A stretch of 64,000 nucleotides of DNA. Origin: Lysobacter sp. K5869. GTDB taxonomy: Bacteria; Pseudomonadota; Gammaproteobacteria; Xanthomonadales; Xanthomonadaceae. The notes beneath the pieces are model-generated. The model did no database searches, had not been told where the DNA came from, and saw nothing but the letters and a program-made list of their open reading frames with translations. This document shows, piece after piece, positions 35,234 through 53,914 of the stretch. Position numbers and translations under genes: made by a program. The stretch covers positions 4,999,001-5,063,000 of the forward strand of contig NZ_CP072597.1 of the NCBI RefSeq assembly GCF_018847975.1, read 5' to 3'. Each line of letters starts with the position of its first letter. Position 1 is the first letter of the stretch.

Positions 35234-35330
35234 GTTGTGCCCCTGTCTCACCTCGCGAGAATACCGCCGGGCCTGGGGCGGCGTCGGCGGTCGGGGTGAT
35301 GCCCTTCCGGGGGAACTGTGCGGGGCGTCG

Positions 35331-38189: not shown

Positions 38190-38197
38190 AGGGCGAA

Positions 38198-38407
38198 TCA
38201 GTCCCAAAGCTGGATGAGGGGGCGGGCATCGGGCGTGCGCGTTGCCGGGTCGGGAAGATCCACCCAGGTTCCATGCGGCAGCACCGGACCCAGATCGGCT
38301 AAGCCGGGATTGGCGATCAAGGCGGCTTCCACGACGCCAGCCGTGCGGCCCAGCACGCGCCAGCACAACGCGTCCAAGGTCTCTCCCTGCAACGCGTAGA
38401 CGCGCAC
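38198..38407 (-). CDS. X: P2 gpX-like tail protein (LysM-like)
   Basis: The 69-residue protein MRVYALQGETLDALCWRVLGRTAGVVEAALIANPGL...LPHGTWVDLP is the gpX pattern: G-x-T-L-D-x-L-C-W-R-x-x-G, N-P-G-L-A-x-x-G-x-x-L-P-x-G-x-x-V-x-L-P. P2 gpX has 67 residues. It overlaps gene L by one base and belongs to the head/tail operon. Confidence 0.95.
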   Translation of the reverse strand: MRVYALQGETLDALCWRVLGRTAGVVEAALIANPGLADLGPVLPHGTWVDLPDPATRTPDARPLIQLWD

Positions 38408-38880: not shown

Positions 38881-38996
38881 GCAGGGATCCAGGTAAAAAC
38901 GGCGGTGGGGGGCGGAAGCGGTAGGGGGAGAGAGGCCCGCGCTTCCGCCCCGCCGCCGTGGCGCGGGTGGGCGACTCGGGGTGACCGGGGCCGGCG

Positions 38997-39731: not shown

Positions 39732-39734
39732 CGG

Positions 39735-40742: not shown

Positions 40743-40793
40743 GGTGTCCGCTTGTGTGGGGTGACGGTAGGGCGTGCGGTCGGTCGGCGCGGA

Positions 40794-41606
40794 TCAGCAG
40801 TCGGTCAGGTCGTCGCCGCCGCCGCCAATCGCGGACGGCCGCGCAGGAACGCCGTTCGGCGTGCTGTCCAGCAGGCCGCGCAGCTCGGCGAGTTGGGTTG
40901 CGGTATCGGTCTTGAACTGCGCCAGCGCGTCGCGGGTGGCGACAGCAATGCGGTCAGCTTCGGCGGCGGCGGTGGCGACGGTTTCGACGGCGCGGGTCAC
41001 GTCGGTGAAACGCGAATCGTCGCTGGCCGCGCGGCGGCTCAGGAGCGAACGCACCTTGTTGAACAGCGATTCGCCCTGCGGCGCCGGCTCGGCTTCGTCC
41101 TCAAACGACAGTTCGACCGGCTCGGCGACGGTGAAGACATTGGCGGGGCTGTGCTTGCGGCGGCCTAGGGTGGATTCGGGATTGGACGCGCAGAACGACA
41201 ACGCTTCGGTGCCCAGGCTCGCGGGGCTGTCGGTGACGGCCAAGCCGACGAGATAGGCGCGGCCGGAATCGGCGAAGTCGGGATCGATCTCAATCGACGA
41301 ATACAGCTTCTGGCTGTTCTTGTTCAGCGCGATCAGCGACGGCAACGGCGCGACCTGGGCGAACAGCGCCAGCCGTTCCGCGCCGTCGATGACGACGGTC
41401 TCCGTCTTGAGCGACAGCACGTCGCCGTAGGCGCCGAACTGCGAATCGGCGGACACGCCCCGGATATGTTCCAGCCACACACGCGCCGGGTATTTCTCAC
41501 GGTTGTAGGTCGCCGCGGCGTCCAGCAGCCACGACCGTTCGATGGTGCGCTTATCGCAGGTCTTACCCTCGACCGCGACCCGGAAAAACCTGCTCTTGCT
41601 TGCCAC
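40794..41606 (-). CDS. O: P2 gpO-like capsid scaffold and protease
   Basis: The 270-residue protein starts SKSRFFRVAVEGKTCDKRTIERSWLLDAAATYNREKYPARVWLEHIRG. The N-terminal protease has Asp18, His47 and Ser103/104 in places matching the P2 triad (D19, H48, S107). The C-terminal half is a scaffold-type helix (RFTDVTRAVETVATAAAEADR) ending in DDLTDC. P2 gpO has 284 residues. It is the first gene of the long leftward O-to-S operon, divergent from P. Confidence 0.94.
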   Translation of the reverse strand: MASKSRFFRVAVEGKTCDKRTIERSWLLDAAATYNREKYPARVWLEHIRGVSADSQFGAYGDVLSLKTETVVIDGAERLALFAQVAPLPSLIALNKNSQKLYSSIEIDPDFADSGRAYLVGLAVTDSPASLGTEALSFCASNPESTLGRRKHSPANVFTVAEPVELSFEDEAEPAPQGESLFNKVRSLLSRRAASDDSRFTDVTRAVETVATAAAEADRIAVATRDALAQFKTDTATQLAELRGLLDSTPNGVPARPSAIGGGGDDLTDC

Positions 41607-41682
41607 GAATAACCCCGAACGTGTGTGCTTTCGATGGATTCATGGTCGGCGGCGGACGCGGTTTGTCCAACGGATACGCCGC

Positions 41683-41699
41683 GTGTAACGCGCTTACAC
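41683..41699. promoter_or_regulatory. Palindrome between O and P, candidate Ogr site
   Basis: GTGTAA-CGCGC-TTACAC is a perfect 6-bp dyad. Its centre lies 85 bases from the leftward O start and 57 bases from the rightward P start. The same GTGTAA/TTACAC half-sites occur before J and V. In P2 both O and P are served by Ogr-dependent late promoters in this interval. The rest of the 141-base gap shows no gene. Confidence 0.6.
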
Positions 41700-41747
41700 C
41701 GACGCAAGCAATGCAGGCCACACGCGCGCGCGACTTAGCTTTTGCGG

Positions 41748-43508
41748 ATGCTTTCTCTCGCACCCGCTCCGCACATCGATCAACGCCGCAGCGCCCGTGC
41801 GCTCTATTGGCAGGGCTGGCGCGTGACCGACATTGCGCAAAGCCTCGGCCTCAAGCGGACCACGGTCGAAAGCTGGAAAACGCGCGACGCCTGGGACGAC
41901 GCACCGCCGATTGCTCGCGTTGAAGCCTCGATAGAGGCGCGCTTGACGCAATTGGTCCTGAAGGAAGTCAAGACCGGCGGCGACTACAAGGAAATTGACC
42001 TGCTTGGCCGGCAGATCGAGCGGCTAGCGCGCGTGCGGCGCTACGGCGAGCCCGGCGGCCACGAAGGCGACTTGAATCCGAACATCGAGCGGCGCAACGC
42101 CAAGCCCAAGCGCAAGCCGGTGCGCAACGTGTTCAGCGACGATCAGAAGGCGCATCTTCTGCGCACGTTCGATCAGCAGCTATTCGGCTATCAACGCACG
42201 TGGCGCAAGGCCGGGTTGACCGAGCGAATCCGAAATATTCTGAAGTCGCGACAGATCGGCGCAACGTTCTACTTCGCCCGCGAAGCGTTGGTAGACGCGT
42301 TAGAGACCGGGCGAAACCAAATCTTCCTGTCGGCGAGCAAGAAGCAGGCGCACGTTTTCCGCCAGTACATCATCGAGTTTGCGCAAACGGCCGACGTTGA
42401 CCTGTCGGGCGATCCGATCGTGCTGCCCAACGGCGCAACGCTGTACTTCCTCGGCACGAACATGCGCACCGCGCAGAGCTATCACGGCAATCTGTACTTT
42501 GACGAATACTTTTGGACGTTCCAGTTCGCAGCGTTGCAGAAGGTCGCCGCCGGCATGGCCTTGCATAAGCAATGGCGGCAAACGTATTTCTCCACCCCGT
42601 CCAGCGTCACGCACGAAGCCTATGCGTTCTGGACTGGCGAGCAGTTCAACAAGGGCCGCCCGCGCGACCAGCGCATCAAGCTCGATGTGTCGCACGACGC
42701 CTTGCAGCACGGCCTGCGCTGCGCGGACGGACATTGGCGCCAGATTGTTACTGTCATGGACGCGGCGCGGTTGGGCTGCGACCTGTTCGACCTGGAGGCG
42801 TTGCGCAAGGAAAAGAGCCCCGAGGAATGGGCGAACCTGCTTATGTGCGAGTTCGCCGACGACACGGCGTCGGTGTTCCCGCTCGCCGAATTGCAGCGGT
42901 GCTTTGTCGATTCCTGGGAAGCCTGGGAGGACTACAAGCCGTTCGCGATGCGCCCGTTCGGCTATCGCGAAGTCTGGATCGGCTACGACCCCGCGTTGAG
43001 CAGCGACAGCGCCGGCCTAGTGGTCGTAGCGCCGCCCGCCGTGCCCGGCGGCAAGTTCCGCGTGCTGGAAAAGCACCAGTGGCGCGGCATGGACTTCAAG
43101 GTTCAGGCCGAGCGCATCCGTAAGATTACGCAACAGTACAACGTGACGTATATCGGCATCGACGCAACCGGCGTCGGCGCGGGCGTGTACCCGCTGGTGC
43201 GCGACTTCTTCCCGGCCGCGCGAAATATTACGTACTCGGTCGAAACCAAAACCCGCATGGTCCTGAAAGCCAAGGACGTGATCGGGAGCGGTCGCCTGGA
43301 GTTCGATGCGTCGTGGTCCGACTTGGCGCAGGCGTTCATGGCGATTCGCAAGACCATGACCGCGAGCGGCCGGCAGGCCACGTTTGAAGCGAGCCGCAGC
43401 GACGACATTGGGCACGCCGACCTCGCGTGGGCGGTGATGCACGCACTTGACCATGAACCGCTCAGCGGCGACAGCCCGCGCGGAAAATCCATTGTGGAGA
43501 TGTTTTGA
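41748..43508 (+). CDS. P: P2 gpP-like terminase ATPase subunit
   Basis: The protein has 586 residues from the ATG at 41748; a TTG at 41742 would add two residues. It begins with an HTH (ARALYWQGWRVTDIAQSLGLKRTTVESWKTRDAWDD). The ATPase core has LKSRQIGATFYFAREALVDAL (Walker A variant), LYFDEYFWTF (Walker B) and a C-terminal nuclease-fold part with IGYDPALSSDSAGLVV. P2 gpP has 590 residues. It drives DNA packaging and is the first gene of the rightward P-Q operon. Confidence 0.96.
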   Translation: MLSLAPAPHIDQRRSARALYWQGWRVTDIAQSLGLKRTTVESWKTRDAWDDAPPIARVEASIEARLTQLVLKEVKTGGDYKEIDLLGRQIERLARVRRYGEPGGHEGDLNPNIERRNAKPKRKPVRNVFSDDQKAHLLRTFDQQLFGYQRTWRKAGLTERIRNILKSRQIGATFYFAREALVDALETGRNQIFLSASKKQAHVFRQYIIEFAQTADVDLSGDPIVLPNGATLYFLGTNMRTAQSYHGNLYFDEYFWTFQFAALQKVAAGMALHKQWRQTYFSTPSSVTHEAYAFWTGEQFNKGRPRDQRIKLDVSHDALQHGLRCADGHWRQIVTVMDAARLGCDLFDLEALRKEKSPEEWANLLMCEFADDTASVFPLAELQRCFVDSWEAWEDYKPFAMRPFGYREVWIGYDPALSSDSAGLVVVAPPAVPGGKFRVLEKHQWRGMDFKVQAERIRKITQQYNVTYIGIDATGVGAGVYPLVRDFFPAARNITYSVETKTRMVLKAKDVIGSGRLEFDASWSDLAQAFMAIRKTMTASGRQATFEASRSDDIGHADLAWAVMHALDHEPLSGDSPRGKSIVEMF

Positions 43509-44512
43509 TGACTGCTGCACCCCAAGCCGCCGACACAACGCCGAAGGCGGCGAAGGCGCAGGCGTTTACCTTCGGCGATCCGGTGCCAGTGCTGGACAAA
43601 CGCGGCGTACTGGATCATGGCGAATGCGTGCGCGTCGGCCGCTGGTACGAACCGCCCGTATCCATGAGCGGCCTTGCAAGTGCGTTCCGATCCAGCCCGC
43701 ACCACGCGTCGGCGATCTATACGAAGTGCAATATCCTGTCCTCGACGTTCGTTCCGCACCGACTGCTCAGCGGCGATCAGTTCGAGCGCTTGGCGCTGGA
43801 TATGATCGCGCTGGGCAATGCCTACTTGGAACGGCGCAACGCCCGCAGTGGCAAGGCAATTGCGCTTAAGCACTCGCTTGCGGTCTACACGCGACGCGGC
43901 ATTGAGGACGGCGCCTACTACTTCACCCAGGGCGGCGAGGAACACGAATTCGCGCGCGACTCGGTATTCCAGTTCATCGAACCGGACTTGACCCAAGAGC
44001 TTTACGGCGTGCCGCAGTACGTCGGCGCGTTGCAGTCGGCGTTCCTCAACGAGTCGGCGACGCTGTTCCGGCGCCGCTACTACCTCAACGGCAGCCATGC
44101 CGGTTTCATCATGTACGTAAACGACGCCGCGCAGGATCAAGCCGACATTGACGCCATGCGCCAAGCGCTGCGCGACTCCAAGGGCGTCGGCAACTTCCGC
44201 AATCTGTTCCTGTACTCGCCGAACGGGAAAAAGGACGGCGTGCAGGTGATTCCGATCAGCGAGGTTGCGGCGAAGGATGAATTCCTGGGCATCAAGGGCG
44301 CGACGCGGGATGACATTCTGGCCGCGCATCGCGTGCCGCCGCAGTTGCTAGGCATGCCGCCGAACAACACGGGCGGGTTTGGCGACGTGGAGAAGGCCGC
44401 CCGCGTGTTCGCTCGCAATGAGTTGATCCCTTTACAAGCGCGATTTCGACGCATCAATGAATGGGTGGGCGAGGAAGTTGTCCGTTTCATTCCATACGCA
44501 CTCGGGGAGTAG
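43508..44512 (+). CDS. Q: P2 gpQ-like portal protein
   Basis: The protein has 334 residues from the ATG at 43508, sharing one base with the P stop (TGATG). It has AFTFGDPVPVLDKRGVLDHGECVRVGRWYEPPVSMSGLASAFRSSPHHASAIYTKCNIL, then FIEPDLTQELYGVPQYVGALQSAFLNESATLFRRRYYLNGSHAGFIMY, both diagnostic of gpQ. P2 gpQ has 344 residues. It forms the dodecameric portal. Its 3' end meets the leftward cargo cluster 19 bases away. Confidence 0.96.
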   Translation: MTAAPQAADTTPKAAKAQAFTFGDPVPVLDKRGVLDHGECVRVGRWYEPPVSMSGLASAFRSSPHHASAIYTKCNILSSTFVPHRLLSGDQFERLALDMIALGNAYLERRNARSGKAIALKHSLAVYTRRGIEDGAYYFTQGGEEHEFARDSVFQFIEPDLTQELYGVPQYVGALQSAFLNESATLFRRRYYLNGSHAGFIMYVNDAAQDQADIDAMRQALRDSKGVGNFRNLFLYSPNGKKDGVQVIPISEVAAKDEFLGIKGATRDDILAAHRVPPQLLGMPPNNTGGFGDVEKAARVFARNELIPLQARFRRINEWVGEEVVRFIPYALGE

Positions 44513-44531
44513 ACCCCGAGGCGCTGAAACT

Positions 44532-45401
44532 TCATCTTTGGCCGGTGACGCCAGCCGACAGCAAGCTTTGATGTTCGGCCAGGAAGAACTGGATATAGCT
44601 TCTTGTCAGGTTGCAGAACAGACGCGCTTGCTGCGGATCTATCGCCACATTTGAACTAAGGTCCATGCCGTGACGCACGCCGCCGCCAGTTGGCGAGGAT
44701 AGATAACCGTGCATGGTCGTTACCCAGTTCAAAATCTGATCTAGCGTCGTGCCCGGGCGTTTGTTGCGCAAGTCCCGGATGATCGTATTGAAATACTTTC
44801 CTTCAATTTTTCCGGATTCGGTTTCTACCCCACGTAATGCTGTCGAAACAGTCTCCAGCAGCCACACAACTTCCTGCACAGCTTCACGCCCGCGCCCTTC
44901 TAGTAGCAGCACCTCAGACCTAGCCAAGGAAGCCTCGATAGTGCTTTTAGCCTGCTCAGCCATCGTAGGCGCTTCGACCTTTACTGGAATCGCGATAGTA
45001 GTGAGGTCGCGGGGAAGTAGGTCAGGCGGACGAATTTCGTAGCCGATGTTGTGCTTGGCTAATACAACGTTTATGCCCGAGGCGTCAGGAGCGAACAAAC
45101 CCTGCGCCTGAATCTCCTGGCAAGCGTTAAAAAACCTCTCGATGAATAGTGGTGCGGTATTGGAGCCCAGTGTCATCGCGTGGCGTAAGTCACTTTCGGC
45201 CCAGCCTTCGTTTGAACTACGGCTATCAATGCCGAAATGCGTTTTGAAATGCTCCAGCATTTCCCACCGATCACCTTGCCCGCTGATTCGGTCAATGATG
45301 TCAACGAACTCCAGCACGGCCTCGGGAGGGATCGCGGAATAGATGTACTGGCCGTCTGCGGGAGGCTGGAACCGCCACGAACCCGGGAAGCGAAGCCCCA
45401 C
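44532..45401 (-). CDS. Abi_C-like protein, possible abortive-infection function
   Basis: The protein has 289 residues from a GTG at 45401 with GGGGAG eight bases upstream. The C-terminal ~110 residues (KYFNTIIRDLRNKRPGTTLDQILNW, then GGGVRHGMDLSSNVAIDPQQARLFCNLTRSYIQFFL) resemble the Abi_C domain of abortive-infection proteins: a helical bundle with an R-N-x-x-G-x-x-H-G-like turn. The N-terminal half is unrecognised. It is the last gene of the cargo cluster, next to portal gene Q, the P2 region where anti-phage genes such as old and tin sit. GC content is visibly lower than in the flanks. The Abi call is moderate. Confidence 0.6.
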   Translation of the reverse strand: MGLRFPGSWRFQPPADGQYIYSAIPPEAVLEFVDIIDRISGQGDRWEMLEHFKTHFGIDSRSSNEGWAESDLRHAMTLGSNTAPLFIERFFNACQEIQAQGLFAPDASGINVVLAKHNIGYEIRPPDLLPRDLTTIAIPVKVEAPTMAEQAKSTIEASLARSEVLLLEGRGREAVQEVVWLLETVSTALRGVETESGKIEGKYFNTIIRDLRNKRPGTTLDQILNWVTTMHGYLSSPTGGGVRHGMDLSSNVAIDPQQARLFCNLTRSYIQFFLAEHQSLLSAGVTGQR

Positions 45402-45402
45402 T

Positions 45403-45771
45403 TTATGCTCCCCGGCCGATTCGCTTTAGCACTTCTTGATGCTCCTGCAGCACGGAACTGGAACTTGACTTTGACCTATCCGCAACGCGGCCGAACCTTG
45501 CGATTTCTTCCCGAGCCCGGTCGTAATGATGAAGCCCAACCAGTGACGCAACGAGGCCGGATGAAGCTAGCGCATCAGATGGGCGCAACCGAGTCAACGC
45601 AGTGAAGGCCGTTTCTCCCAGCGTCCAATCTTGAGTGCGCGTCGAGATGCCGGCGAGCAATAGCCACGCGCGCGCTTCGTCTGGGTCGCTGTCCGTTAAA
45701 GCGATCAGCAAGGCCCTAGCTCTATCGATCTCGCCGGCCTCAAGCAGCCCCTTAATTTCCTCAATGCTCAT
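45403..45771 (-). CDS. Small TPR-type protein
   Basis: The protein has 122 residues from the ATG at 45771 (MSIEEIKGLLEAGEIDRARAL), with AGGA eight bases upstream; an ATG at 45786 overlaps the previous stop (ATGA) and is the alternative. Repeated helix pairs (GEIDRARALLIALTDSDPDEARAWLLLAGI, then GETAFTALTRLRPSDALASSGLVASLVGLHHYDRAREEI) fit about two and a half TPR units. It probably mediates protein contacts. It lies tightly between the Rhs-tip gene and the Abi_C-like gene, suggesting co-function. Confidence 0.7.
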   Translation of the reverse strand: MSIEEIKGLLEAGEIDRARALLIALTDSDPDEARAWLLLAGISTRTQDWTLGETAFTALTRLRPSDALASSGLVASLVGLHHYDRAREEIARFGRVADRSKSSSSSVLQEHQEVLKRIGRGA

Positions 45772-45782
45772 GTTCTTTCCTG

Positions 45783-46382
45783 TCAAAGTTCGTCCATGCA
45801 GCGCCAGCTAACGCACCCTAGCATGCAGCGTGCCCGGCTACCGCCCCAAACATTGGGCATATCAGGATCGGTTTGCGCGCGGTCGCATAGCTTTTCGCAT
45901 GCGGCAATTTCTTTCGCGCAACTGTTCTCTTCTTCCTCATCGGGACACACCGCCTGACCAATCAGATTACCGGCAGCACCGCCAACCGCCGCGCCGAGTA
46001 GGCCACCGGCTTTGCTTCCGGCGACAGCACCGCCGGTGCCTGTCGCAGCTGCGCACGCTAGCGCACCGGGACCGGACGGGCTGCACACCAAGCCGCCCGC
46101 CGCGCCGCCGGCCGCAGCTCCCGCCAGCCCGCCACCATAGTAGCCCGCTGCCCCCACGCACACCGCGCCACCTGTCGTGTACGCGGCGACGCAAGCCGCA
46201 TTCTTCGCCAGCCCCAAGGGGTCGTAGTACATGAGCGGGCTATTGGACACGTAGGCGTAGGTGCTAGGTCCGTCATGCAATCCGAGGGGGTCGGATTGGA
46301 GGAAGCGCGCGAACGCCGAATTGCTGGTGATAGCGAGTGCGCAAAGCAATGCCGTGCACGCGATAAGTTTTGAACGGTTCAT
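45783..46382 (-). CDS. Secreted orphan Rhs-tip protein with Cys-rich tail
   Basis: The protein has 199 residues. A signal peptide (about 1-25, ending SAFA) runs directly into FLQSDPLGLHDGPSTYAYVSNSPLMYYDPLGLA. This is the end of the Rhs repeat-associated core, which normally precedes a toxin, but here the whole Rhs shell is missing. Next come a Gly/Ala-rich glycine-zipper stretch ([14 protein letters not shown]) and a Cys-rich C-terminus with about eight Cys (CAKEIAACEKLC, then ARCMLGCVSWRC). The start overlaps the upstream transglutaminase-like gene (ATGA). A small toxin or envelope protein is possible; the function is unknown. Confidence 0.72.
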   Translation of the reverse strand: MNRSKLIACTALLCALAITSNSAFARFLQSDPLGLHDGPSTYAYVSNSPLMYYDPLGLAKNAACVAAYTTGGAVCVGAAGYYGGGLAGAAAGGAAGGLVCSPSGPGALACAAATGTGGAVAGSKAGGLLGAAVGGAAGNLIGQAVCPDEEEENSCAKEIAACEKLCDRAQTDPDMPNVWGGSRARCMLGCVSWRCMDEL

Positions 46383-47392
46383 GGGTTTCGTCCTTGATTG
46401 AGTTTCGCTTGATTGACGCCGCGCCGATACTTCGCTTTTTCTTTCTGTTGCTCGGCCCGCCAGCCTAACGCCTCAGCCTTGGCGAAGGCAGCGCTATTAC
46501 AGCTCGCCAATGCTGCAAGGTCTTGTTGTTGCGCCGGGGTTAGCGCCTGCTGCGGTTGGCCGTCATAGCGCTTTCGAGCCAGCCGGCCGCACGCGCTGCC
46601 CCTGTGCAAGATGGCTGATACATTGCGCGGATCGCTTTTCAGTACCATGTCCGCTACCGCTAGGCGCTGTTCATTCGCGCCGCTCTTGCTGTAGTGCTCC
46701 AATAGCGTTTCCAGCGTGACGCCTAACGACTCTTTCGGCGACAAGGTGCGTAGATAGATGCCGCTTTTGATCGCCGTCGCGGTGATGTTCAGTTCCTTGC
46801 GATAGCTGTCGTCGGTTTTTGTGCCGAAGCTCGTGGCCTCGATGTTGACCCATTGGCCGCCGTCAACCTTCGCCCGTGCAAACAGATGGTGCGGCGCGAC
46901 CGCTAGCGAAGCGTCCAGCCCGATGCGTTGCGCGAGAATCGCAAACAGGATCGGCATCGAGACGCAATTGCCCTTGCGGGTGGCGAGATACGTTGCGAGT
47001 AGTTTGTTTCGTATGTCCTCGCCGAACGGGTCATCCAGGTCATAGCGAAAGGGTCGTGCATCGTTCCAAGGCCCAGGCTGCGCCAGCGAGTCCACGAGGA
47101 TTCGCAATTTTTCGCGCCGGCTTGCCCCGACGGGTATACGGGCCTGGATTGCACGCGTAAGGGAGTCCAACTGACGCAACGTCACGGCTTCATCGGTGCG
47201 CGGATCAATCAGTCGGTCAATCGCGATCTTGGCGCGGGCCAAGTCCAGTTGCGCATCCGGTGTCGCCAAGACGCGGCGCACCTGGGCGAGCGGATCGGAC
47301 GGACTTGCGATTGCAGAAGGAACAGCGAAAGCAAGCGCAAGGCCGCATGCCGCGAAGAATTGCGGGGCGCGCCAACGTCTTCGTTTTCTCAT
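46379..47392 (-). CDS. Periplasmic transglutaminase-like protein
   Basis: The protein has 337 residues from the ATG at 47392. A signal peptide (MRKRRRWRAPQFFAACGLAL, cleavage near AIA-SP) is followed by a transglutaminase_core2/SirB1-like domain. Its Cys is in TRKGNCVSMPILFAILAQRIGL and its His in VAPHHLFARAKV, with Glu in WVNIEAT where most relatives have Asp. The C-terminal third (VADMVLKSDPRNVSAILHRGSACGRL) is TPR-like, as in SirB1 relatives. It lies 38 bases downstream of the effector gene, suggesting a linked role. Confidence 0.78.
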   Translation of the reverse strand: MRKRRRWRAPQFFAACGLALAFAVPSAIASPSDPLAQVRRVLATPDAQLDLARAKIAIDRLIDPRTDEAVTLRQLDSLTRAIQARIPVGASRREKLRILVDSLAQPGPWNDARPFRYDLDDPFGEDIRNKLLATYLATRKGNCVSMPILFAILAQRIGLDASLAVAPHHLFARAKVDGGQWVNIEATSFGTKTDDSYRKELNITATAIKSGIYLRTLSPKESLGVTLETLLEHYSKSGANEQRLAVADMVLKSDPRNVSAILHRGSACGRLARKRYDGQPQQALTPAQQQDLAALASCNSAAFAKAEALGWRAEQQKEKAKYRRGVNQAKLNQGRNP

Positions 47393-47430
47393 GCCATCCT
47401 CCATGATGGGCTAAGTTGCGAACAGGTCGG

Positions 47431-50400
47431 TTACATCAGTGACATTTTCAGCGCTTTGTCTGTTTGCTCTTGGTTCTGTTGCTGTTGTTGCTGCTGCGCC
47501 TGTTCCTGCGCTTGCTTTTGCGTCTGCTCGTAGTTGAATTGTTCCGTTTCGCGAACGGTGTCCTGCAAGGGGGGCGCCTGCTGGGAAACATCAATGGCGG
47601 TATGGAAGCCCTCGACCTTTCCGCCCATCCAAAGCGTATCGCCGACGAGGGCGACCGGGCCGAGGCGGTCAACGTCTTGGATGCCGTTGCACTTCGCCGC
47701 CAGCATCGCCGCTGCCGCGTGTTCGTCCGATAGCCCTCCGGGCACGTTCGCGCGAATCTTCGCGATCATCGCTTGATCGCTTCGCGAGAAGTGCGACAGG
47801 TCAATGGCCGGCTCAGGCTCGGGCGCTGCCGGCTGCGGTGTCGGCGCAGGGGCCATGCGGTCGGCCAACTCGGCCGCGTGGCGGGGAGTCGTCGCCGGTT
47901 CGATAGGCGTCGGAGCCCCGGCCATCGCGGGCGGTATCGACGGGACCGGGCTAGGCTCAGGCGACGAAGGCCGGGCATCGGGCGTCGCTCGCTCGGGGTC
48001 GGCGCGGGGGGCTTCTGGAATGCTCGCCGATTCGTCGGAACGGTCCTGGCGGCGTGCGCGGTCCTGTTCGGCGCGCTCGCCCGGTTGGGTCGGCGCGGAT
48101 GGCTCCGGCTCTGAGCGGCGCGCCTCGCGTGAATTCTGCGGGGCTGCGCGGTCGTCGCGGTCTGCGGGTGGGGGTGTCGGTGCGACGGATGCAGGGGCCT
48201 CGTCGTAGGCGCGTGCGGGCGTTTCCCGCTCGGTTTTCGGTTCGTCCGGTTCGCGTTGGACGCCGGACGCTGGGCGAACTGCGCGGGTCTGCTGGGCGAC
48301 GGCGAGCGCTTGCACGGTATCGGGGTCGACCACGCCCGTTGACGGCAGTCGATTTGCCTCCTGGAACTGGCGCACGCCGTGTTCCGTTGCCGCGTCGAAC
48401 TGCCCATGTTGCGGCAGCGGGGATTCCCCCGGCCCTCGATAGCCCATGCGATCCAGGCGGTATTGCAGCAACGCCACGTCCTGGCCCTCGCTTCCGCGCC
48501 GCAGGGCATCGTCCTGGCCGCTCGGCGGCGCTGGCGTGGCCTGCGCGTCGTTTTGCGCCGGCAGTGACCGCGGCGACGCCTGGGCTTCGGCTGCGGGCTG
48601 CTCGGGCTCTACGGGTTTGCGCGCTTCGTCTGCGCGGGCCTGGACCTGGGCGGCATCCGCTGACGGTTCCGCCTTTGGCGGCAGGGGCGCGGCTGGTTGG
48701 CTAGGGGCCGGCGACGATGGCGCGGGGGTTGGTTGCGCGTCCTGCCGTGGCGCGGCCTGGGCGCGGTCGGCGTCAATGGGGCGGGTAACGATTTCCGGTT
48801 CGCGATCCGCCGCAATCGCCGCTGCGGCGGCCGCCTGCTGGGCGGTCAACTGCACGTCATCGCGCGACAGGCCGAGCCGGTTTGCCTCGCGCAGCGCTTG
48901 TTCCTGCGCCTCGCGCTGCTGCGGCGACAACGCCTCAATGCGCAACTCGGGTGTGTCCGGGACCGGAGCCGGGCGCGCCTGGACTTCCGTCAGCGCTTGC
49001 GCGATCTCTGGCGCCGTCGTCACGGCCGCGACGCGCCGGACGCCATCGGCGTACCCGTAAACGTGAGCGATCGGACTGCGCACGTCGTAACCACGATCAG
49101 CGTTCGGCTCAAGCTGAAACGTCGTCATGCCCGGCGCGATGCCATTGGCGTCGCGGGTGCGGCTGATGGCGAGCATGGACGCGTCCATCTGCTCGGGCGT
49201 CGGGTTCACGCCGCGTTGCTGATACGTGTCTAGCAGAATTGCGCGGTCGCGGTCCTGCTCTGCCGGCGCCGGCATGGGAGACAGCGCGGCCACATACTGC
49301 CGGTGCTGGGCCAACTGCGGAGCGAGTTCGGCGTTGGTGCGCTCTAACTCCACCGGCAGGTTTCCGGGTGCGGGAGCGCCGTTCGGGCTCAGCCATTGGC
49401 CGGCGTCGTCGCGGCGGTACAACTCGCCGTTGCTGGCGGTGACATAGCCCTGCGCCAGCGCGGTTGTTGCGGCGGGCAGCTTATCGCCATCAAAGCCGCT
49501 GGCACGGAAGGCGATTTCGTAACGCGACGCGATAGGCGCGGGGCCATTGGCGATATTTTCGCGGATGACCTGGTTAGCGGCTTGTTCCAACGCGGCAGCA
49601 CGTTGCGGCGACGCGATTTCCGGGCGAATGTCATTCGCGCCGTGATCGACCCGGCCGACCACCACATTACGTTCCCACTGCCCGGTGCGGCTATTACGCT
49701 CCCACGGCGCGGGATCTAGGCTCGGCGCATCCCCCGGCGATTGCGGTTGAATGAATGGGCTGCGCGGCGGCGGCACGTCCTTGAGTTCCAGCGCCGTCGC
49801 CGCATTGAGCGCGGCCAGATTCAGTTCCCGCGCTTTCTCTGGCGGCGCGGCGAATGTGGTAACGGTTGGATTGTCGATACCGTCGCGGCTTAGGTCCGCA
49901 GTGCGCTCGCGCACCCATTGCCGGCCGGTGAATTCCCACGACACGTTGTCGCGGTCGGTTTGGTGATAGACCTGCCGGTTATCCCACCATTTCGCGACTT
50001 TCTCGCCGGCTTCGCTGCCGGCGTACGCGCCAACCGCGACCGTAATGAGCGCGCCGGGACCGGTCCACGAACCCGCGATGAGTCCAGCGGCGGCGCCACC
50101 GGCAACGCCGCCGACACCGCGCCCGCCGTAGTGCATAGCGTGCGACTGCGCGGCGAGCGGGTTATCTCGGTCGAGCGCCGACGATATGCGCTCACCGGCT
50201 TCTGCCGCCTCTGCAAGGCTGACCGCCCCCGCAGCGGCTACGATGCCTTTGATCGCGATAGCACGCCCGCCGGGCTTGGGCGCTAAGTGTTCGGCTTGCA
50301 CCGAATTCAAACTACTGTTCGCGAGAGAGTCGCGCGCGCTCGCCAATCCTTCCGCCGAAAACGTTAGGCGCCCGCCGTTGTGTGCTTGCTCTATCGCTTC

Positions 50401-51021
50401 CAACAAAGAGGCTCGGCCGTCAGCGGCCGTGCCGAGACTTGGCTTGAATCCCGGCCTATTTACCAACTGAACTGCGTCGAGCGCCTGCTGTTCTGTGCGA
50501 AGAACGCTGACCCATTGTGATTGTGGCGGGCCAAGCTGCGCAACTTCAGCAATTTGTGCGGCGTGCGTTTCTTGATACGTGTAGAACTTTGAATGGAAGT
50601 CCTGATTAATTGCCCGAACCTGACTATTCGATAGTCCATGAGTGTTGTTCGTGTAAAGATCGCCATTCACCAGGGCGGTTTTTATCGTGCTTTCGACGTG
50701 ATGCACTCGCTGCACCACTCTTTGCACTGCCGCTTGGTCTCCGCTTTCTAGATACGACTGCCAGTCCGCGCTGTCCTCAATGTCCTTCAACGCGCTAACG
50801 ACTACATTCGTATAGGACTTCAAATGCCCGCCAACGTGCGGGGACACTTCCAGTTGGGCGCCGAGTGGCTTTCCGTCGGGCAAGTAGACTAAATTGCCGG
50901 GATTATCGATGTTGTATAGCTTGTCTCGGCCTAGCGTCTGCAATAGCTCGCTGTTCTCGAAAACGTTGTTCTGCTCGATGCAATGATGCAGCTCAAAAGT
51001 ATGCTGAAGCTTGTCATTCAT
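47431..51021 (-). CDS. XVIPCD-type T4SS effector with AHH-like nuclease domain
   Basis: The protein has 1196 residues. Residues 8-80 resemble an AHH/HNH nuclease: His12-His13 (ELHHCIEQ), Asn43 (GNLVYLP), His62 and His66 (SPHVGGHLKSY). A Gly/Ala-rich zipper follows near 300-345. After Pro/Ala linkers comes a peptidoglycan-binding domain (840-908: LRRGSEGQDVALLQYRLDRM, FDAATEHGVRQFQ). The last ~125 residues match the XVIPCD layout: SDQAMIAKIRANV, NGIQDVDRLGPVAL, GKVEGFHTAIDVSQQAPPLQDTV and a Gln-rich tail. Such proteins are injected into rival bacteria by the Xanthomonadales type IV system. An Imm11-like gene lies 47 bases upstream. Domain calls are by motif. Confidence 0.82.
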   Translation of the reverse strand: MNDKLQHTFELHHCIEQNNVFENSELLQTLGRDKLYNIDNPGNLVYLPDGKPLGAQLEVSPHVGGHLKSYTNVVVSALKDIEDSADWQSYLESGDQAAVQRVVQRVHHVESTIKTALVNGDLYTNNTHGLSNSQVRAINQDFHSKFYTYQETHAAQIAEVAQLGPPQSQWVSVLRTEQQALDAVQLVNRPGFKPSLGTAADGRASLLEAIEQAHNGGRLTFSAEGLASARDSLANSSLNSVQAEHLAPKPGGRAIAIKGIVAAAGAVSLAEAAEAGERISSALDRDNPLAAQSHAMHYGGRGVGGVAGGAAAGLIAGSWTGPGALITVAVGAYAGSEAGEKVAKWWDNRQVYHQTDRDNVSWEFTGRQWVRERTADLSRDGIDNPTVTTFAAPPEKARELNLAALNAATALELKDVPPPRSPFIQPQSPGDAPSLDPAPWERNSRTGQWERNVVVGRVDHGANDIRPEIASPQRAAALEQAANQVIRENIANGPAPIASRYEIAFRASGFDGDKLPAATTALAQGYVTASNGELYRRDDAGQWLSPNGAPAPGNLPVELERTNAELAPQLAQHRQYVAALSPMPAPAEQDRDRAILLDTYQQRGVNPTPEQMDASMLAISRTRDANGIAPGMTTFQLEPNADRGYDVRSPIAHVYGYADGVRRVAAVTTAPEIAQALTEVQARPAPVPDTPELRIEALSPQQREAQEQALREANRLGLSRDDVQLTAQQAAAAAAIAADREPEIVTRPIDADRAQAAPRQDAQPTPAPSSPAPSQPAAPLPPKAEPSADAAQVQARADEARKPVEPEQPAAEAQASPRSLPAQNDAQATPAPPSGQDDALRRGSEGQDVALLQYRLDRMGYRGPGESPLPQHGQFDAATEHGVRQFQEANRLPSTGVVDPDTVQALAVAQQTRAVRPASGVQREPDEPKTERETPARAYDEAPASVAPTPPPADRDDRAAPQNSREARRSEPEPSAPTQPGERAEQDRARRQDRSDESASIPEAPRADPERATPDARPSSPEPSPVPSIPPAMAGAPTPIEPATTPRHAAELADRMAPAPTPQPAAPEPEPAIDLSHFSRSDQAMIAKIRANVPGGLSDEHAAAAMLAAKCNGIQDVDRLGPVALVGDTLWMGGKVEGFHTAIDVSQQAPPLQDTVRETEQFNYEQTQKQAQEQAQQQQQQQNQEQTDKALKMSLM

Positions 51022-51068
51022 TTTGGCAGTTCCGTTGCTCTCTCACTCATCCATTTCCACGGATGACC

Positions 51069-51707
51069 TCAGAAGTCCGCAGCATCTTCTAGCGAAATGC
51101 CGACGCAACCGCTGTCGATGATCGCGCCCCTTAGCTCTCTGTCGCAAAAGACATAGCTAGAAAAAGGCGTTCTGAACACATGAGCCTCGGAAATTTCACG
51201 CTCCCTGAAAGCTAGGCTCGCGCCGGGTCCAATGCGGTAGTGTTTCCCCTTCGCATATTCCTCGCCAATTCTTATATCGAGCTTCGACCGGCTTTCGTCC
51301 AGAACATCGATAACTCTCAAAACGTCGCACAGATGATAGTCGCCAAGCGAAGCTCCATCCGCCGACACTACACTGCACGGCGTAAACGCGAATCCTTCAG
51401 CGTCGTGGCGCTCAAATACCTGCTTGAGTTCATCAGACACAAGCCAATAGCCGCTAAATACGCCTTCCAAGTCTTTCAACGGACGCCCCTGCGCGCTCTG
51501 AATGAGGACGGGAAGTTCGGAAAGGACGGGGAAACCGCCTTCGGCTGGCCGAAGAATGCGCCGGGGGGGCGTCAGCAGCCGCTCTAGGTTTGAAAATGTC
51601 AAACCGTGACCGGAACCGCCACTGTAAATATCAGGTTGAAGGACATAGAAACGGCCTGTCGGCGCGTCGGATGGTTGCGCGGTGACAGAGTGTGATTCGA
51701 TGTTCAT
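51069..51707 (-). CDS. Imm11-like (DUF1629) immunity protein
   Basis: The protein has 212 residues from the ATG at 51707 (MNIESHSVTAQPSDAPTGRF). FYVLQPDIYSGGSGHGLTF at the start, LPVLIQSAQGRPLKDLEGVFSGYWLVSDELKQVFERHDAEGFAF in the middle and a DVLRVIDVLDESRSKLDI block are the DUF1629/Imm11 pattern. This family contains immunity proteins encoded beside polymorphic toxins. It is cytoplasmic, the correct place to neutralise a nuclease. It is the first gene of the leftward cargo operon, directly before the effector. Confidence 0.8.
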   Translation of the reverse strand: MNIESHSVTAQPSDAPTGRFYVLQPDIYSGGSGHGLTFSNLERLLTPPRRILRPAEGGFPVLSELPVLIQSAQGRPLKDLEGVFSGYWLVSDELKQVFERHDAEGFAFTPCSVVSADGASLGDYHLCDVLRVIDVLDESRSKLDIRIGEEYAKGKHYRIGPGASLAFREREISEAHVFRTPFSSYVFCDRELRGAIIDSGCVGISLEDAADF

Positions 51708-52144
51708 CAGATGAACTCTTCCTTGTCGGCAGTTGCAGAACGCGAGCAGGCGGGGCCGCGAACCGTGGCCTGAGTATCGCCCAGAAGGCGCCCTAGGCGC
51801 GTCAGATTTTTCCGACGCCGGGGTCAGGGAAGTCCATCGGGCGACGGGAGCAGCTTCGGACAGGCATATCTCGCGCCTATCTGCGAACGCGCCGGGGGCG
51901 CCCCGGCGACCGGCGTTCGGCGCGCTGGCGCGCGGTCGAGACCCCGCCACGCCTTCCCGCTAGTTGTGCGTCTTTCGACTCAAACGCGGGAGCCCCTTCA
52001 AGCCCTGCGCGGCCAGTTCGCCGCGCGGGTGAACCCGCCCCCTTGCCGCGACGCATTTCGACGCACGCGAGCCCCAATTTCGCCCCACTCGCCGACCGTC
52101 GCCAAGGACAGGCGTCGTGATCGCACAAGCCCGCAGGGAGGGGC
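51708..52144. other. Non-coding leader of the cargo operon
   Basis: Together with the repeat array that follows, about 880 bases between the immunity gene and the integrase lack a credible gene. This left part is GC-rich and holds only frames without family resemblance or start context. It should contain the cargo promoter, but I cannot pick out convincing hexamers. Confidence 0.6.
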
Positions 52145-52441
52145 CTTCGGAAAACGGTAACTTCGGTAATCCACCCCGAAAATAGCTATCAACTGACTGA
52201 TTTATAAGGCTTTTCGTGGTTACCGCTGCACGGTAATTTTGGGTAACCTCTCCGGTAATCATCTGCTAAGCCATTGATTTATATGAGAGCAATTCATCAT
52301 CTTAGTTACTTAGAAGATCGGTAACCAATTACCTCTTAGTTACCGCAAAGGTTACCGCAGCCTAGGCGCTCTAACTCGATGATTCTTATGCATTTGTTGA
52401 TCGATTTTCGTACAGGTTACCGAAATTACCGTTTTCCGAAG
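52145..52441. repeat. Iteron-like GGTAA/TTACC array framed by a 27-bp inverted repeat
   Basis: GGTAA occurs at 52156, 52165, 52232, 52242, 52254 and 52320, and TTACC at 52220, 52329, 52340, 52352, 52417 and 52426: twelve copies, six each way, in 275 bases, many extended to CGGTAAC or GGTTACCG. The array is framed by arms at 52145-52171 and 52415-52441 that match at 25 of 27 positions in inverted orientation (CTTCGGAAAACGGTAA...). The interior is strikingly AT-rich. The features fit a replication origin (P4-type iterons) or a dense operator. Confidence 0.75.
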
Positions 52442-52559
52442 CTCTCCCAAATCCTCAGCCACAATTGGGCTACGGCCAAAGTCGGCACAATCTCGCGTCA
52501 CTGTCGGCAGCCGACCGTCGTACCCTCGGGAGCGGTTGGGCTCCGCCACGACAAACGAA

Positions 52560-52582
52560 AAGGCCGCCCAGCGGGCGGCCTT
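52560..52582 (-). terminator. Terminator after the integrase gene
   Basis: AAGGCCGCCC (52560-52569) pairs perfectly with GGGCGGCCTT (52573-52582) around an AGC loop. Read leftward, the stem is followed by TTCGTTTGT, giving a T-rich tail. It lies five bases beyond the integrase stop. Confidence 0.85.
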
Positions 52583-52587
52583 GGGAA

Positions 52588-53751
52588 CTATTCCGGCTTG
52601 GGCTTGGGGATAACGCGGAGGAAAGCATCCCACGCAGTCATAAGCACCTTTCGCTTGGCGATCAGTTGCCCGCGTCGGTAAGCCGCTTCGGTCTTATCCT
52701 TGATGACGTGCGCTAATGCCATTTCAACAATGAAATTCTCCGTCTCGGTTTCCTCGGCCGCCCAATCTCGGAACGAAGACCGGAAGCCGTGGACCGTGTA
52801 CTGAGAAAACCCGAGCTTGTCCGGTTTCTGCAATAAGTAGAGCATCGTGTTTTCGGATAAGCGGAACGGCGGCTTGTCCTTCGGCAAAGATTTGAGAATT
52901 TCCAACGCCTCCGCACACAACGGCACCACATGCTCTTTCCCGCCCTTGATTCGTTCTGGCGGAATGGTCCATCTCGCTTTATCTAGGTCGAACTCGTGCC
53001 AGTCGGAGCCGGTAGTTTCTTCGGTGCGCACCGCAGTCAGAATCGTAAATCGCAATGCCTTCGCTGAGCGGCCAGTACGCGTTCGTAGCTTCGCCATCAG
53101 CGCAGGCACTTCCGCGTAGGGCATCGCCGCGTGGTGCTTGACCTTTTTGACCTTGGACGCCTTCGGGAGTGCGTGTTCTAGGTGGCCTTTCATCCGCGCA
53201 GGGTTTTCACCCGTCACCAGCTTTTCATAATGGGCGTAGCCCCATATGCGCTCGATTCGTCCGCGCAACCTTGTTGCTGTCTCGGTCTTGTCCATCCAAA
53301 TCTTGCGCAGACAGGCCAACACAACGCCGTCGGTCACATGCTCAAGCGGCAAGTCGGCTTTAGGCCCGTGATCCTTCAACGACTGACGCCATTGGGCAGC
53401 CTGGGCGTCGTTCTTCCATTCCTCCGACGCCTTGGTGATGTAGGCGTCGCAGACCTCACCCCAGGTGTACCGTTTGGCGGCTTTGCGGGCGATCCTGGCC
53501 GCCATCGGATCATCGCCCCTGGCGAGGGCTTTGCGATGCTCGGCGGCCCGCTCCCGCGCTTCCTGCACGTCCACGGCCGTCAGCGAACCTAGTCCCATCT
53601 CCCGGCGCCGCCGGTTCCGCTCGTAGCGAAATACCCAACTGCGGGCGTTGGTCTTGGTCACCTGTAAGTAGAGCCCGCCCCCGTCCGCGTGATGTCCCGT
53701 CCTGGCCGTGGCAATCTGCCGGGCCGACAATCGATGAACCCCTTTCGCCAT
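52588..53751 (-). CDS. int: Tyrosine-type phage integrase (P4-like)
   Basis: The protein has 387 residues from the ATG at 53751, with GGAGGTGGC immediately upstream. The N-terminal DUF4102 arm-binding domain (LSARQIATARTGHHADGGGLYLQVTKTNARSWVFRYERN, then MGLGSLTAVDVQEAR) is followed by a core-binding domain and a catalytic domain. Catalytic residues are Arg242 (LTAVRTEE), Lys269 (RIKGGKEH), His321 and Arg324 (HGFRSSFRDW), His348 (ALAHVI) and Tyr358 (AAYRRG). It recombines attP with tRNA-Ser. It lies next to attR, at the opposite end from the repressor and early genes. Confidence 0.96.
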   Translation of the reverse strand: MAKGVHRLSARQIATARTGHHADGGGLYLQVTKTNARSWVFRYERNRRRREMGLGSLTAVDVQEARERAAEHRKALARGDDPMAARIARKAAKRYTWGEVCDAYITKASEEWKNDAQAAQWRQSLKDHGPKADLPLEHVTDGVVLACLRKIWMDKTETATRLRGRIERIWGYAHYEKLVTGENPARMKGHLEHALPKASKVKKVKHHAAMPYAEVPALMAKLRTRTGRSAKALRFTILTAVRTEETTGSDWHEFDLDKARWTIPPERIKGGKEHVVPLCAEALEILKSLPKDKPPFRLSENTMLYLLQKPDKLGFSQYTVHGFRSSFRDWAAEETETENFIVEMALAHVIKDKTEAAYRRGQLIAKRKVLMTAWDAFLRVIPKPKPE

Positions 53752-53899
53752 GCCACCTCCTACCCATGTCCCTACCCATGTTTGGGCGGCGGATCATAGC
53801 GGAACGATACGGACATGTGCGGAACATCTTTTGTTGCTGGACAACCACTTACAACCGAAACGCGGACCGATACGGACCGATACGGAACGGTTATGGCGG
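53752..53899. repeat. Integrase-side att arm with two repeat families
   Basis: CCTACCCATGT occurs at 53759-53769 and 53771-53781, matching the copy at 13967 near attL. CGATACGGA occurs at 53805-53813, 53868-53876 and 53878-53886, two of them within the tandem GACCGATACGGA. No gene fits here. The two families could be integrase arm sites and excisionase or host-factor sites. Confidence 0.6.
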
Positions 53900-53914
53900 C
53901 CCCTCTCTCCGCCA
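53900..53914 (+). other. attR core
   Basis: CCCCTCTCTCCGCCA is identical to 13901-13915. Upstream sequence does not form a tRNA, so this is the displaced 3' tail of tRNA-Ser, followed by the original chromosomal terminator. Confidence 0.93.

What the first reader, a model, noticed from the sequence alone, without database searches (positions are those of the whole stretch)
47431..51707. P2-like prophage carries an XVIPCD-type killing effector with its immunity gene
Seen: a 1196-residue protein has an AHH/HNH-like nuclease start (His12-His13, Asn43, His62, His66), a peptidoglycan-binding domain, and a C-terminal ~125-residue region with NGIQDVDRLG, VEGFHTAIDVSQQ and a Gln-rich tail. A DUF1629/Imm11-like gene precedes it by 47 bases. 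Known: XVIPCD proteins are substrates of the Xanthomonadales bacteria-killing type IV secretion system, normally paired with immunity genes. Inference: the phage supplies its host with a contact-dependent weapon, and the immunity gene would protect lysogens and punish loss of the prophage.
Basis: partly seen in the sequence, partly recalled or inferred. Interest (0 to 1): 0.85.

Follow-up and report, generated by a model that had tools for sequence, protein, structure and literature searches.

The report
Prophage-carried antibacterial DNase with its antidote
A virus dormant in a Lysobacter chromosome carries a gene for a likely DNA-cutting toxin, its antidote gene and an export tag that looks suited to the bacterium's own cell-to-cell injection machine, so infection may arm the bacterium against its rivals.

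Summary
The window contains a 40.0-kb P2-like prophage bounded by 15-bp att repeats at a tRNA-Ser gene. Between gpQ (portal) and the integrase lie an Imm11 gene and, 47 bp after it, a 1196-aa protein: AHH nuclease, conserved middle region, peptidoglycan-binding domain, Gln-rich C-terminus. Pfam's XVIPCD model does not recognise that C-terminus. Profile-profile comparison, one-way cross-HMM scoring, predicted helix/strand order, co-occurrence with classical XVIPCDs and replacement by a classical XVIPCD on the same AHH chassis suggest a divergent XVIPCD; Foldseek listed no solved XVIPCD among its 50 best. The host has a VirB/VirD4 cluster and 20 classical XVIPCD loci. The closest characterised protein is TfdA, a Stenotrophomonas T4SS DNase. 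Imm11 lies directly upstream of the AHH effector at 27 of 27 loci examined. Beside gpQ, 5 of 11 Lysobacter sites carry an XVIPCD-type effector and 3 carry RHS proteins; prophages of a Xanthomonas-like genus acquired AHH-Imm11 at the same spot separately. The effector looks mosaic: its front is 87% identical (DNA) to another prophage's copy, its export tag closest to chromosomal effectors. The papers searched hold no report of a prophage-borne X-T4SS effector. Toxicity, secretion, immunity and benefit to the phage are inferred.

The parts
13901..53914 (.). P2-like prophage between 15-bp att repeats at the 3' end of tRNA-Ser(GGA)
   Evidence: repeat at 13901-13915 and 53900-53914; tRNA-Ser 13823-13915; integrase beside the right repeat; phage genes
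47431..51021 (-). TfdA-like effector, 1196 aa
50716..51003 (-). AHH (HNH/Endo VII) nuclease domain, aa 7-102; H12 H13 N43 H62 H66
   Evidence: PF14412 E 3.1e-7, above cut-off; residues
48742..50484 (-). conserved middle region (aa 180-760) shared with effectors that carry other N-terminal toxins
   Evidence: tblastn in relatives; Zeta_toxin and Tle1-like N-termini, SLT-like below cut-off
48304..48486 (-). PG_binding_1 domain, aa 846-906
   Evidence: E 1.4e-15
47437..47784 (-). divergent XVIPCD-like export domain with Gln-rich C-terminal helix, aa 1080-1195
   Evidence: hhalign to host XVIPCDs, 0 of 150 shuffles as good; cross-HMM, strong one way and weak the other; predicted helix-helix-three strands-long helix; no PF20410 hit; no XVIPCD in Foldseek's 50 listed matches
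51069..51707 (-). Imm11 (DUF1629) immunity gene, 212 aa from ATG at 51707
   Evidence: PF07791 E 5.2e-50; directly upstream of the AHH effector at 27 of 27 loci examined
52588..53751 (-). tyrosine integrase, Arm-DNA-bind_3 type
43505..44512 (+). portal gpQ, flanking the cargo site
   Evidence: PF04860 and phrog_68
41742..43508 (+). terminase large subunit gpP
46379..47404 (-). transglutaminase-like protein in the same gene string
   Evidence: PF13369 E 3.8e-9; also in the G019 prophage
45783..46382 (-). RHS-core tail fragment of 199 aa with an apparent signal peptide (by eye); full-length RHS proteins stand at this site in three relatives
   Evidence: TIGR03696 E 7.5e-9
45403..45786 (-). TPR protein
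44532..45401 (-). protein of unknown function, 289 aa, end of the cargo block
   Evidence: no family in Pfam, NCBIfam or PHROGs beyond chance-level E-values

Best explanation
A P2-like temperate phage of Lysobacter carries, in a cargo slot between gpQ and the integrase, a two-gene antibacterial unit. The Imm11 protein neutralises the AHH nuclease inside the producer. The effector's divergent XVIPCD-like C-terminus and Gln-rich tail dock on the host's VirD4, and the host X-T4SS delivers it by contact into rival Gram-negative bacteria, where the AHH domain degrades DNA as TfdA does. Lysogeny would thus add a round of ammunition to the host's existing gun. Shown by sequence: the gene pair, prophage boundaries, domain content, host T4SS cluster, recurrence of the cargo, mosaic pattern at the export domain. 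Inferred: DNase activity, neutralisation, VirD4 docking, delivery, benefit to phage and host.
For: AHH and Imm11 above curated cut-offs. Imm11 directly upstream of the AHH effector at 27 of 27 loci examined and at 0 of 39 other loci that share the C-terminal domain. AHH-Imm11 pairs act as toxin and immunity in Myxococcus (PMC12077181, passages). TfdA, with an N-terminal H10/H11 nuclease, a central region related to zeta-toxin proteins, a C-terminal XVIPCD and an immunity partner, is an X-T4SS DNase toxic to E. coli (PMC11253643, passages and section 8). Host genes for VirB8, 9, 10, 11, 1, 2, 3, 4 (C-terminal part), 6 and VirD4 in one cluster with XVIPCD effectors. C-terminal domain related to XVIPCD: hhalign score 25.8 against at most 17.7 in 150 column shuffles; its HMM scores 14 of 22 classical XVIPCDs at or above the 1% shuffle level. 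22 of 23 genomes with the domain also have classical XVIPCDs, against 16 of 97 without it (kinship not corrected). On the same AHH chassis 10 of 20 fetched stretches hold an effector that ends in a classical XVIPCD by an HMM of host XVIPCDs.
Against: PF20410 does not hit the window protein; only 1 of 29 members of its C-terminal family hits. The hhalign probability is only 26%. The reverse cross-HMM test is weak: the XVIPCD HMM puts 4 of 29 C-terminal rows at the 1% shuffle level, and the window's row is not among the 14 best printed. The nine best rows of the forward test carried 25 extra residues of Gln-rich tail, which the 12 host rows did not. Foldseek of the predicted C-terminal model lists no solved XVIPCD among its 50 shown matches (of 555), best E 0.2. 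The residue before HH is Leu, not Ala or Gly. Only part of VirB4 was scanned; VirB5 and VirB7 were not searched by profile. Lysobacter also has effector-like proteins without XVIPCD that serve defence rather than T4SS killing (PMC10989847, passages). No toxicity, secretion or binding data exist for this protein.
Confidence: 0.78

Rival explanations
1. The pair is mainly a selfish toxin-antidote module that stabilises the prophage or blocks competing phages, and export by the T4SS is incidental or lost.
For: X. citri immunity proteins mainly prevent self-poisoning (PMC10933484 abstract), so an unstable antidote could punish prophage loss. The gene lies on a mobile element. A Lysobacter effector relative without XVIPCD serves defence, not T4SS killing (PMC10989847 passages).
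Against: The 1196-aa export-type architecture is kept, with a conserved C-terminal domain. The same chassis with other toxins (zeta, Tle1-like, SLT-like; G005, a 5.77-Mb contig) stands without matches to this prophage's phage proteins in the 20-kb stretches read. A peptidoglycan-binding domain has no obvious role inside the cell.
Confidence: 0.13
2. The protein serves the phage itself: a virion-carried or lysis-related cell-wall protein.
For: PHROGs hits are mostly endolysins, nearly all through the peptidoglycan-binding region.
Against: No relative in 50,697 phage records at E<=1e-3. It sits outside the morphogenesis genes. The prophage already has an endolysin at 36747-37538. Relatives occur on bacterial chromosomes, mostly without this phage's genes nearby, and on plasmids.
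Confidence: 0.04
3. The pair is exported, but by another machine (for example a T6SS), and the C-terminus is not an X-T4SS tag.
For: PF20410 and Foldseek fail on the C-terminus. AHH-Imm11 pairs use the T6SS and outer-membrane exchange in Myxococcus (PMC12077181 passages). The host was not searched for a T6SS.
Against: Collinear profile match to XVIPCD, swap with classical XVIPCD on the same chassis, and 22 of 23 co-occurrence with XVIPCD genomes.
Confidence: 0.08
4. The cargo is a passenger of a separate island beside a dead prophage and has nothing to do with the phage.
For: In G017 a relative survives next to only a portal and a gpS-like fragment, that is, in a decayed prophage.
Against: In the window, in G019 and in G007 the pair lies inside tRNA-derived repeats with near-complete sets of the same phage genes.
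Confidence: 0.04

Closest known systems
TfdA (20845) and its immunity protein 20840 of Stenotrophomonas maltophilia (PMC11253643)
   Same: N-terminal HH nuclease, large central region related to zeta-toxin proteins, C-terminal export domain, partner immunity gene, X-T4SS host
   Different: chromosomal; 899 aa; classical XVIPCD. The window protein has 1196 aa, an added peptidoglycan-binding domain and a divergent export domain, and sits in a prophage. TfdA's own sequence was not held, so no direct alignment was made
XVIPCD effectors (X-Tfes) of Xanthomonas and Lysobacter (PMC6536674)
   Same: variable N-terminal toxin, Gln-rich C-terminus, immunity neighbour, host X-T4SS; AHH, PGB and zeta-toxin domains are listed for X-Tfes
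   Different: C-terminus not recognised by PF20410; mobile on a temperate phage
AHH-Imm11 polymorphic toxin-immunity pairs (PMC3482391, PMC12077181)
   Same: the same two domain families as neighbours
   Different: delivered there by T6SS or outer-membrane exchange, with Imm11 downstream in Myxococcus; here Imm11 is upstream
Bxa, prophage-encoded polymorphic toxin of Bacteroides (PMC11699363, abstract)
   Same: antibacterial toxin with immunity genes on a prophage
   Different: ADP-ribosyltransferase, other phylum, no X-T4SS tag reported in the abstract
Plasmid-borne DUF1629 / XVIPCD pair of Xanthomonas hortorum, NZ_LR828258.1
   Same: Imm11-type gene followed after 35 bp by an AHH-chassis protein annotated as XVIPCD
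   Different: on a mobilizable plasmid; annotated XVIPCD; about 36% identical over 56% of the query

Membership tests
X-Tfe (XVIPCD effector of an X-T4SS) | C-terminal XVIPCD by the curated Pfam model PF20410 | tested here: not met
   no hit at E<=1; 1 of 29 family members hits, E 2.4e-4
X-Tfe (XVIPCD effector of an X-T4SS) | C-terminus homologous to XVIPCD by profile methods | tested here: met
   hhalign E 7e-4 (probability 26%), 0 of 150 shuffles as good; 14 of 22 XVIPCDs reach the 1% level of the C-terminal HMM, but only 4 of 29 in reverse
X-Tfe (XVIPCD effector of an X-T4SS) | fold match to solved XVIPCD (7mu9, 7r6s, 9p3h) | tested here: inconclusive
   predicted helix, helix, three strands, long helix, the order described for TfcB and XAC2609 (passage); no XVIPCD among the 50 Foldseek matches shown
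X-Tfe (XVIPCD effector of an X-T4SS) | Gln-rich tail | tested here: met
   37% Gln in the last 41 residues
X-Tfe (XVIPCD effector of an X-T4SS) | host encodes an X-T4SS | tested here: met
   Pfam families of VirB8-11, 1-3, 4 (part), 6 and VirD4; 20 PF20410 loci above cut-off; VirB5 and VirB7 not searched
X-Tfe (XVIPCD effector of an X-T4SS) | VirD4 binding and T4SS-dependent secretion | not testable with these tools
   needs experiment
AHH nuclease (PF14412) | HMM above the curated cut-off | tested here: met
   30.8 against 22.3 bits
AHH nuclease (PF14412) | [AG]HH, N, H, H, Y residues (motif from PMC3482391 passages) | tested here: inconclusive
   HH, N43, H62, H66 and a following Tyr are present; the residue before HH is Leu, not Ala or Gly
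Imm11 (PF07791) | HMM above the curated cut-off and adjacent AHH toxin | tested here: met
   169.9 bits; 27 of 27 loci
P2-like prophage | P2-type head, tail and control genes with integrase and att sites | tested here: met
TfdA family | direct homology to TfdA over nuclease and central region | not tested
   architecture agrees with the paper and XVIPCD-bearing relatives of 858-1141 aa exist; the TfdA sequence itself was not compared

The most novel reading that the evidence does not exclude
P2-like phages of the Xanthomonadaceae keep a plug-in slot beside gpQ for antibacterial toxins that the host's own secretion machines fire. The slot has been filled several times independently (AHH effector with divergent XVIPCD, protease-like protein with true XVIPCD, RHS proteins, AHH effector with a poly-Gly end). 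The export tag is exchanged with the resident chromosomal effectors, so the phage keeps its ammunition matched to the host's gun.
Probability: 0.5. Interest if true: 0.76.

Novelty: new variant of a known kind. Interest (0 to 1): 0.62.

Why it matters
Phages are known to bring toxins that act on animal hosts (general knowledge, recalled) and, in Bacteroides, an antibacterial toxin (PMC11699363, abstract). A temperate phage that supplies ammunition for the host's bactericidal type IV secretion system would be a new form of lysogenic conversion, and it makes 'do prophages arm their hosts against competitors?' directly testable by deleting two genes. It also points to a group of export domains that the current Pfam XVIPCD model misses, so X-T4SS effector inventories in Lysobacter may be too short.

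Tried and rejected
Considered and rejected: a lysis or virion role for the protein (endolysin hits come almost only from the peptidoglycan-binding region); a chance ORF (relatives across genera); a passenger island unrelated to the phage (repeat-bounded prophages).

Led nowhere: C-terminal profile against solved structures gave three chance-level hits, while the host XVIPCD profile found 7mu9, 7r6s and 9p3h. Foldseek of the C-terminal model gave nothing significant. Phage collection: no match for effector or Imm11. Viral contigs: no relative of Imm11 or of the N-terminus, two relatives of the C-terminus. Promoter scan upstream of Imm11: none found. First tree had one row (L201) on an extreme branch, apparently a wrong reading frame; it was rebuilt with that frame fixed and the truncated L202 left out; truncated L197 was in neither tree. 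Alignment A1 read minus-strand rows in the wrong orientation and was replaced by A3. One search failed on a command option and was rerun.

Not done: complex prediction of effector with Imm11 or with VirD4; second structure job; direct alignment with TfdA; search of the host for a T6SS; 27 of the 57 AHH places were not looked at in their surroundings.
Full report
WHAT IS THERE. The effector ORF is 47431-51021(-), 1196 aa. Pfam gives AHH over aa 7-102 (E 3.1e-7, above cut-off) and PG_binding_1 over aa 846-906 (E 1.4e-15). The named residues H12, H13, N43, H62 and H66 are right. The neighbour is Imm11 (E 5.2e-50). Its likely start is the ATG at 51707, because relatives begin only a short way before the Imm11 domain, so the gap to the effector is 47 bases. 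The two genes head a same-strand string that continues with a transglutaminase-like gene, an RHS-core tail, a TPR protein and an unknown protein.

THE PROPHAGE. A 15-bp repeat occurs at the 3' end of tRNA-Ser(GGA) (13901-13915) and beside the integrase (53900-53914), 40.0 kb apart. Between them lie portal, gpP-type terminase and GPO scaffold; primase, tail protein, tape measure, sheath and tail fibre; endolysin and spanin-like proteins; Ogr and a repressor-like HTH protein. Names such as gpD, gpN, gpM, gpL, gpS are mine, by gene order. The effector block lies between gpQ and the integrase.

THE HOST. The window is part of a single-contig 5.97-Mb genome. A cluster at about 3.613-3.638 Mb holds Pfam families of VirB8, VirB9 (CagX), VirB10 (TrbI), VirB11 (T2SSE), VirB1 (SLT), VirB2, VirB3, the VirB4 C-terminal part, VirB6 and VirD4 (some names by family plus gene order), with XVIPCD effectors among them. 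PF20410 finds 20 loci above its cut-off in the genome, none in the window (at E<=1 the same search also gave below-cut-off hits in 5 of 14 control genomes).

IS THE C-TERMINUS AN XVIPCD? Pfam says no: PF20410 gives no hit at E<=1 on the whole protein, in the genome search, or on the C-terminal piece; 1 of 29 relatives hits. Other tests suggest a divergent relative. (a) hhalign of 29 C-termini against 12 host XVIPCDs aligns 77 columns collinearly, E 7e-4, probability 26%; the score of 25.8 was not reached in 150 column shuffles (maximum 17.7), and the reversed profile scored 10.1. (b) An HMM of the 29 C-termini scores 14 of 22 classical XVIPCDs at or above the 1% level of 1076 scored shuffled sequences, nine of them above every shuffle. 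Those nine come from AHH effectors and include 25 extra residues of Gln-rich tail; the shuffles keep composition. Of the 12 host XVIPCDs five reach the level. The reverse test is weaker, 4 of 29, and the window's row is not among the best 14 printed. (c) In one relative, G015:C1, the window C-terminus matches (E 7e-4) the stretch that PF20410 matches at 1.8e-34. (d) The AlphaFold model (pLDDT 83.6) is helix, helix, three strands, long helix, the order described for TfcB and XAC2609 (passage). Against: Foldseek shows no XVIPCD among its 50 best (of 555), best E 0.2. (e) Of 120 relatives, 23 have the window-type domain and 38 have PF20410; 22 of the 23 are among the 38 (Fisher p 7e-13; outside the genus 7 of 8 against 11 of 92, p 1.4e-5; shared ancestry not corrected). 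(f) A host protein of 534 aa carries a PF20410 domain followed by the window-type domain.

THE FAMILY. The middle region (aa 180-760), the peptidoglycan-binding domain and the C-terminus recur in Lysobacter with other N-termini. Of 58 fetched stretches, 42 have a hit to the C-terminal piece (40 were chosen for that reason; L089 is a short fragment), and 3 of the 42 have AHH and Imm11. Pfam identifies zeta toxin and Tle1-like lipase N-termini; an SLT-like match is below cut-off; a PIN-like N-terminus was judged by eye and has no Pfam hit. Imm11 occurs at 0 of the 39 non-AHH loci, and these show no match to the ten phage proteins of this prophage that were used as queries (stretches of up to 20 kb; one of them, L066, lies on a contig with a portal fragment 28 kb away).

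AHH WITH IMM11. The AHH N-terminus occurs at 57 places in 29 of 297 family genomes. I fetched 20 stretches covering 22 of these places. With four Lysobacter prophage-type loci (window, L058, L059, L074) and three found beside portals (L146, L150, L153), Imm11 lies directly upstream of the AHH effector at 27 of 27 loci. AHH fragments without their own Imm11 exist: one in L207 and the inactive-looking paralogues in L058 and L059. Of the 20 fetched stretches, 10 hold an effector ending in a classical XVIPCD by an HMM of the host's XVIPCDs, one weakly so (L204), one (L206) has the window-type domain in an overlapping frame, four end in a poly-Gly module, two have a Gln-rich end without a profile hit (L198, L199) and two hold truncated frames (L197, L202). 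Thus the same nuclease chassis is joined to either type of tag.

CLOSEST KNOWN. TfdA of S. maltophilia (PMC11253643; passages and section 8 read) is an 899-aa X-T4SS DNase whose N-terminal H10 and H11 are needed for toxicity, whose central region resembles zeta-toxin proteins, and which has an immunity partner. The review PMC6536674 (passages and the X-Tfe section read) lists AHH, PGB and zeta toxin among X-Tfe domains. AHH-Imm11 pairs are tested toxin-immunity systems in Myxococcus (PMC12077181 passages). A plasmid of X. hortorum has a DUF1629 gene followed by an 'XVIPCD domain-containing protein'; 19 plasmid records, all Xanthomonas, have a relative. Not every effector relative in Lysobacter is a T4SS weapon: Le1637 lacks XVIPCD and serves defence (PMC10989847 passages).

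A CARGO SLOT. In 20 Lysobacter genomes the portal search gives 12 matches in 7 genomes, which are 11 sites because one gene is in two pieces. Beside gpQ, 5 of 11 sites carry an XVIPCD-type effector: the window, G019, one of three in G007 and both in G017. The second G017 site has a 479-aa protein with a true PF20410 domain (31 bits against 24.9) and a below-cut-off M48 protease match; the ends of that element were not determined. Three sites carry RHS proteins of 1416-1554 aa. At the other three nothing better than a chance-level hit (E 0.28, a 55-aa frame) was found. Outside the genus, 26 portal loci were fetched, nine of them shorter than 10 kb because of contig ends; 3 of 26 carry Imm11 with the AHH chassis, ending in the poly-Gly module, and none gave an XVIPCD-type hit. 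In G019 (18-bp repeat, tRNA-Ser) and G007 (repeat of at least 40 bp, tRNA-Asn) the element is bounded by tRNA-derived repeats; the G017 copy with AHH is a remnant.

ORIGIN. A tree of 25 AHH-type effectors (front region, about aa 1-760) places the four Lysobacter prophage copies in one clade (100/98) and the three Xanthomonas-like ones in another (100/100) nested among copies not found beside a portal; at least two changes are forced. The window copy is 87% identical in DNA to the G019 prophage copy from 51995 to 48268. The homology stops just after the peptidoglycan-binding domain, and the export domain is 65% identical to that of G019's prophage copy but 75-77% to effectors elsewhere in G010, G008 and G019; at protein level the difference lies mainly in its first half (60% against 79-81%). 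This is what exchange of the export tag between phage-borne and resident effectors would leave; uneven divergence is not excluded.

HOW IT LIKELY WORKS. Imm11 holds the nuclease in check inside the lysogen; VirD4 recognises the C-terminus; the X-T4SS delivers the protein on contact; the AHH domain cuts the prey's DNA. Only the anatomy is shown. Work on X. citri found immunity proteins mainly guard against self-poisoning (PMC10933484 abstract), so the suggested protection against sister lysogens is less secure, while a cost on prophage loss is possible but untested.

NOVELTY. In the held library, 'XVIPCD' with 'prophage' and 'X-Tfe' with 'prophage' return no paper, nor does 'T4SS effector' with 'prophage' and 'Lysobacter'. 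'XVIPCD' with 'bacteriophage' gives seven papers, none about phage-borne effectors by title (listing). Searches list three and four papers, none about that by title. A prophage-borne antibacterial toxin with immunity is known in Bacteroides (PMC11699363 abstract). Work outside this library was not searched. I rate it a new variant of a known kind.

Noticed in passing
window 45783-46382 (-), with 46379-47404, 45403-45786 and 44532-45401: A 199-aa protein with an apparent signal peptide (by eye) fused directly to an RHS-core tail, within a four-gene string behind the effector; full-length RHS proteins occupy the same phage site in L134, L136 and L140.
   Followed up: partly
L058 9294-9704 (-); L059 10235-10645 (+): A 136-aa paralogue of the AHH domain with the HH pair and both later His lost stands right behind the effector in two relatives but not in the window; perhaps a decoy or a decayed toxin tip (no Pfam hit).
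   Followed up: partly
window 33554-35251 (-): A membrane diguanylate cyclase (7TMR-DISM plus GGDEF) sits among the phage morphogenesis genes, an odd-looking phage cargo.
   Followed up: no
L146 2648-6532 (-), L150, L153, L201, L208, L212, L216: AHH effectors in an unnamed Xanthomonas-like genus end in a shared LPQFANGP-like segment and a long poly-Gly run instead of an XVIPCD; in L146, L150 and L153 a coiled-coil, apparently membrane-anchored gene follows. Possibly another export tag.
   Followed up: partly
L095 9412-11013 (-): A 534-aa host protein carries a classical XVIPCD and the window-type C-terminal domain in tandem.
   Followed up: partly
L089 near 9945-10094 (G008): An isolated 153-bp stretch is 82% identical in DNA to the window effector's tail, a likely gene remnant.
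   Followed up: no
L122, L123 (IMG/VR contigs): Two viral-labelled contigs carry effectors with the window-type C-terminus; none of this prophage's phage proteins used as queries matched in the stretches read. May be misbinned host DNA.
   Followed up: partly
window 11618-12193: A 72-bp tandem repeat array of about seven copies in host DNA left of the prophage.
   Followed up: no
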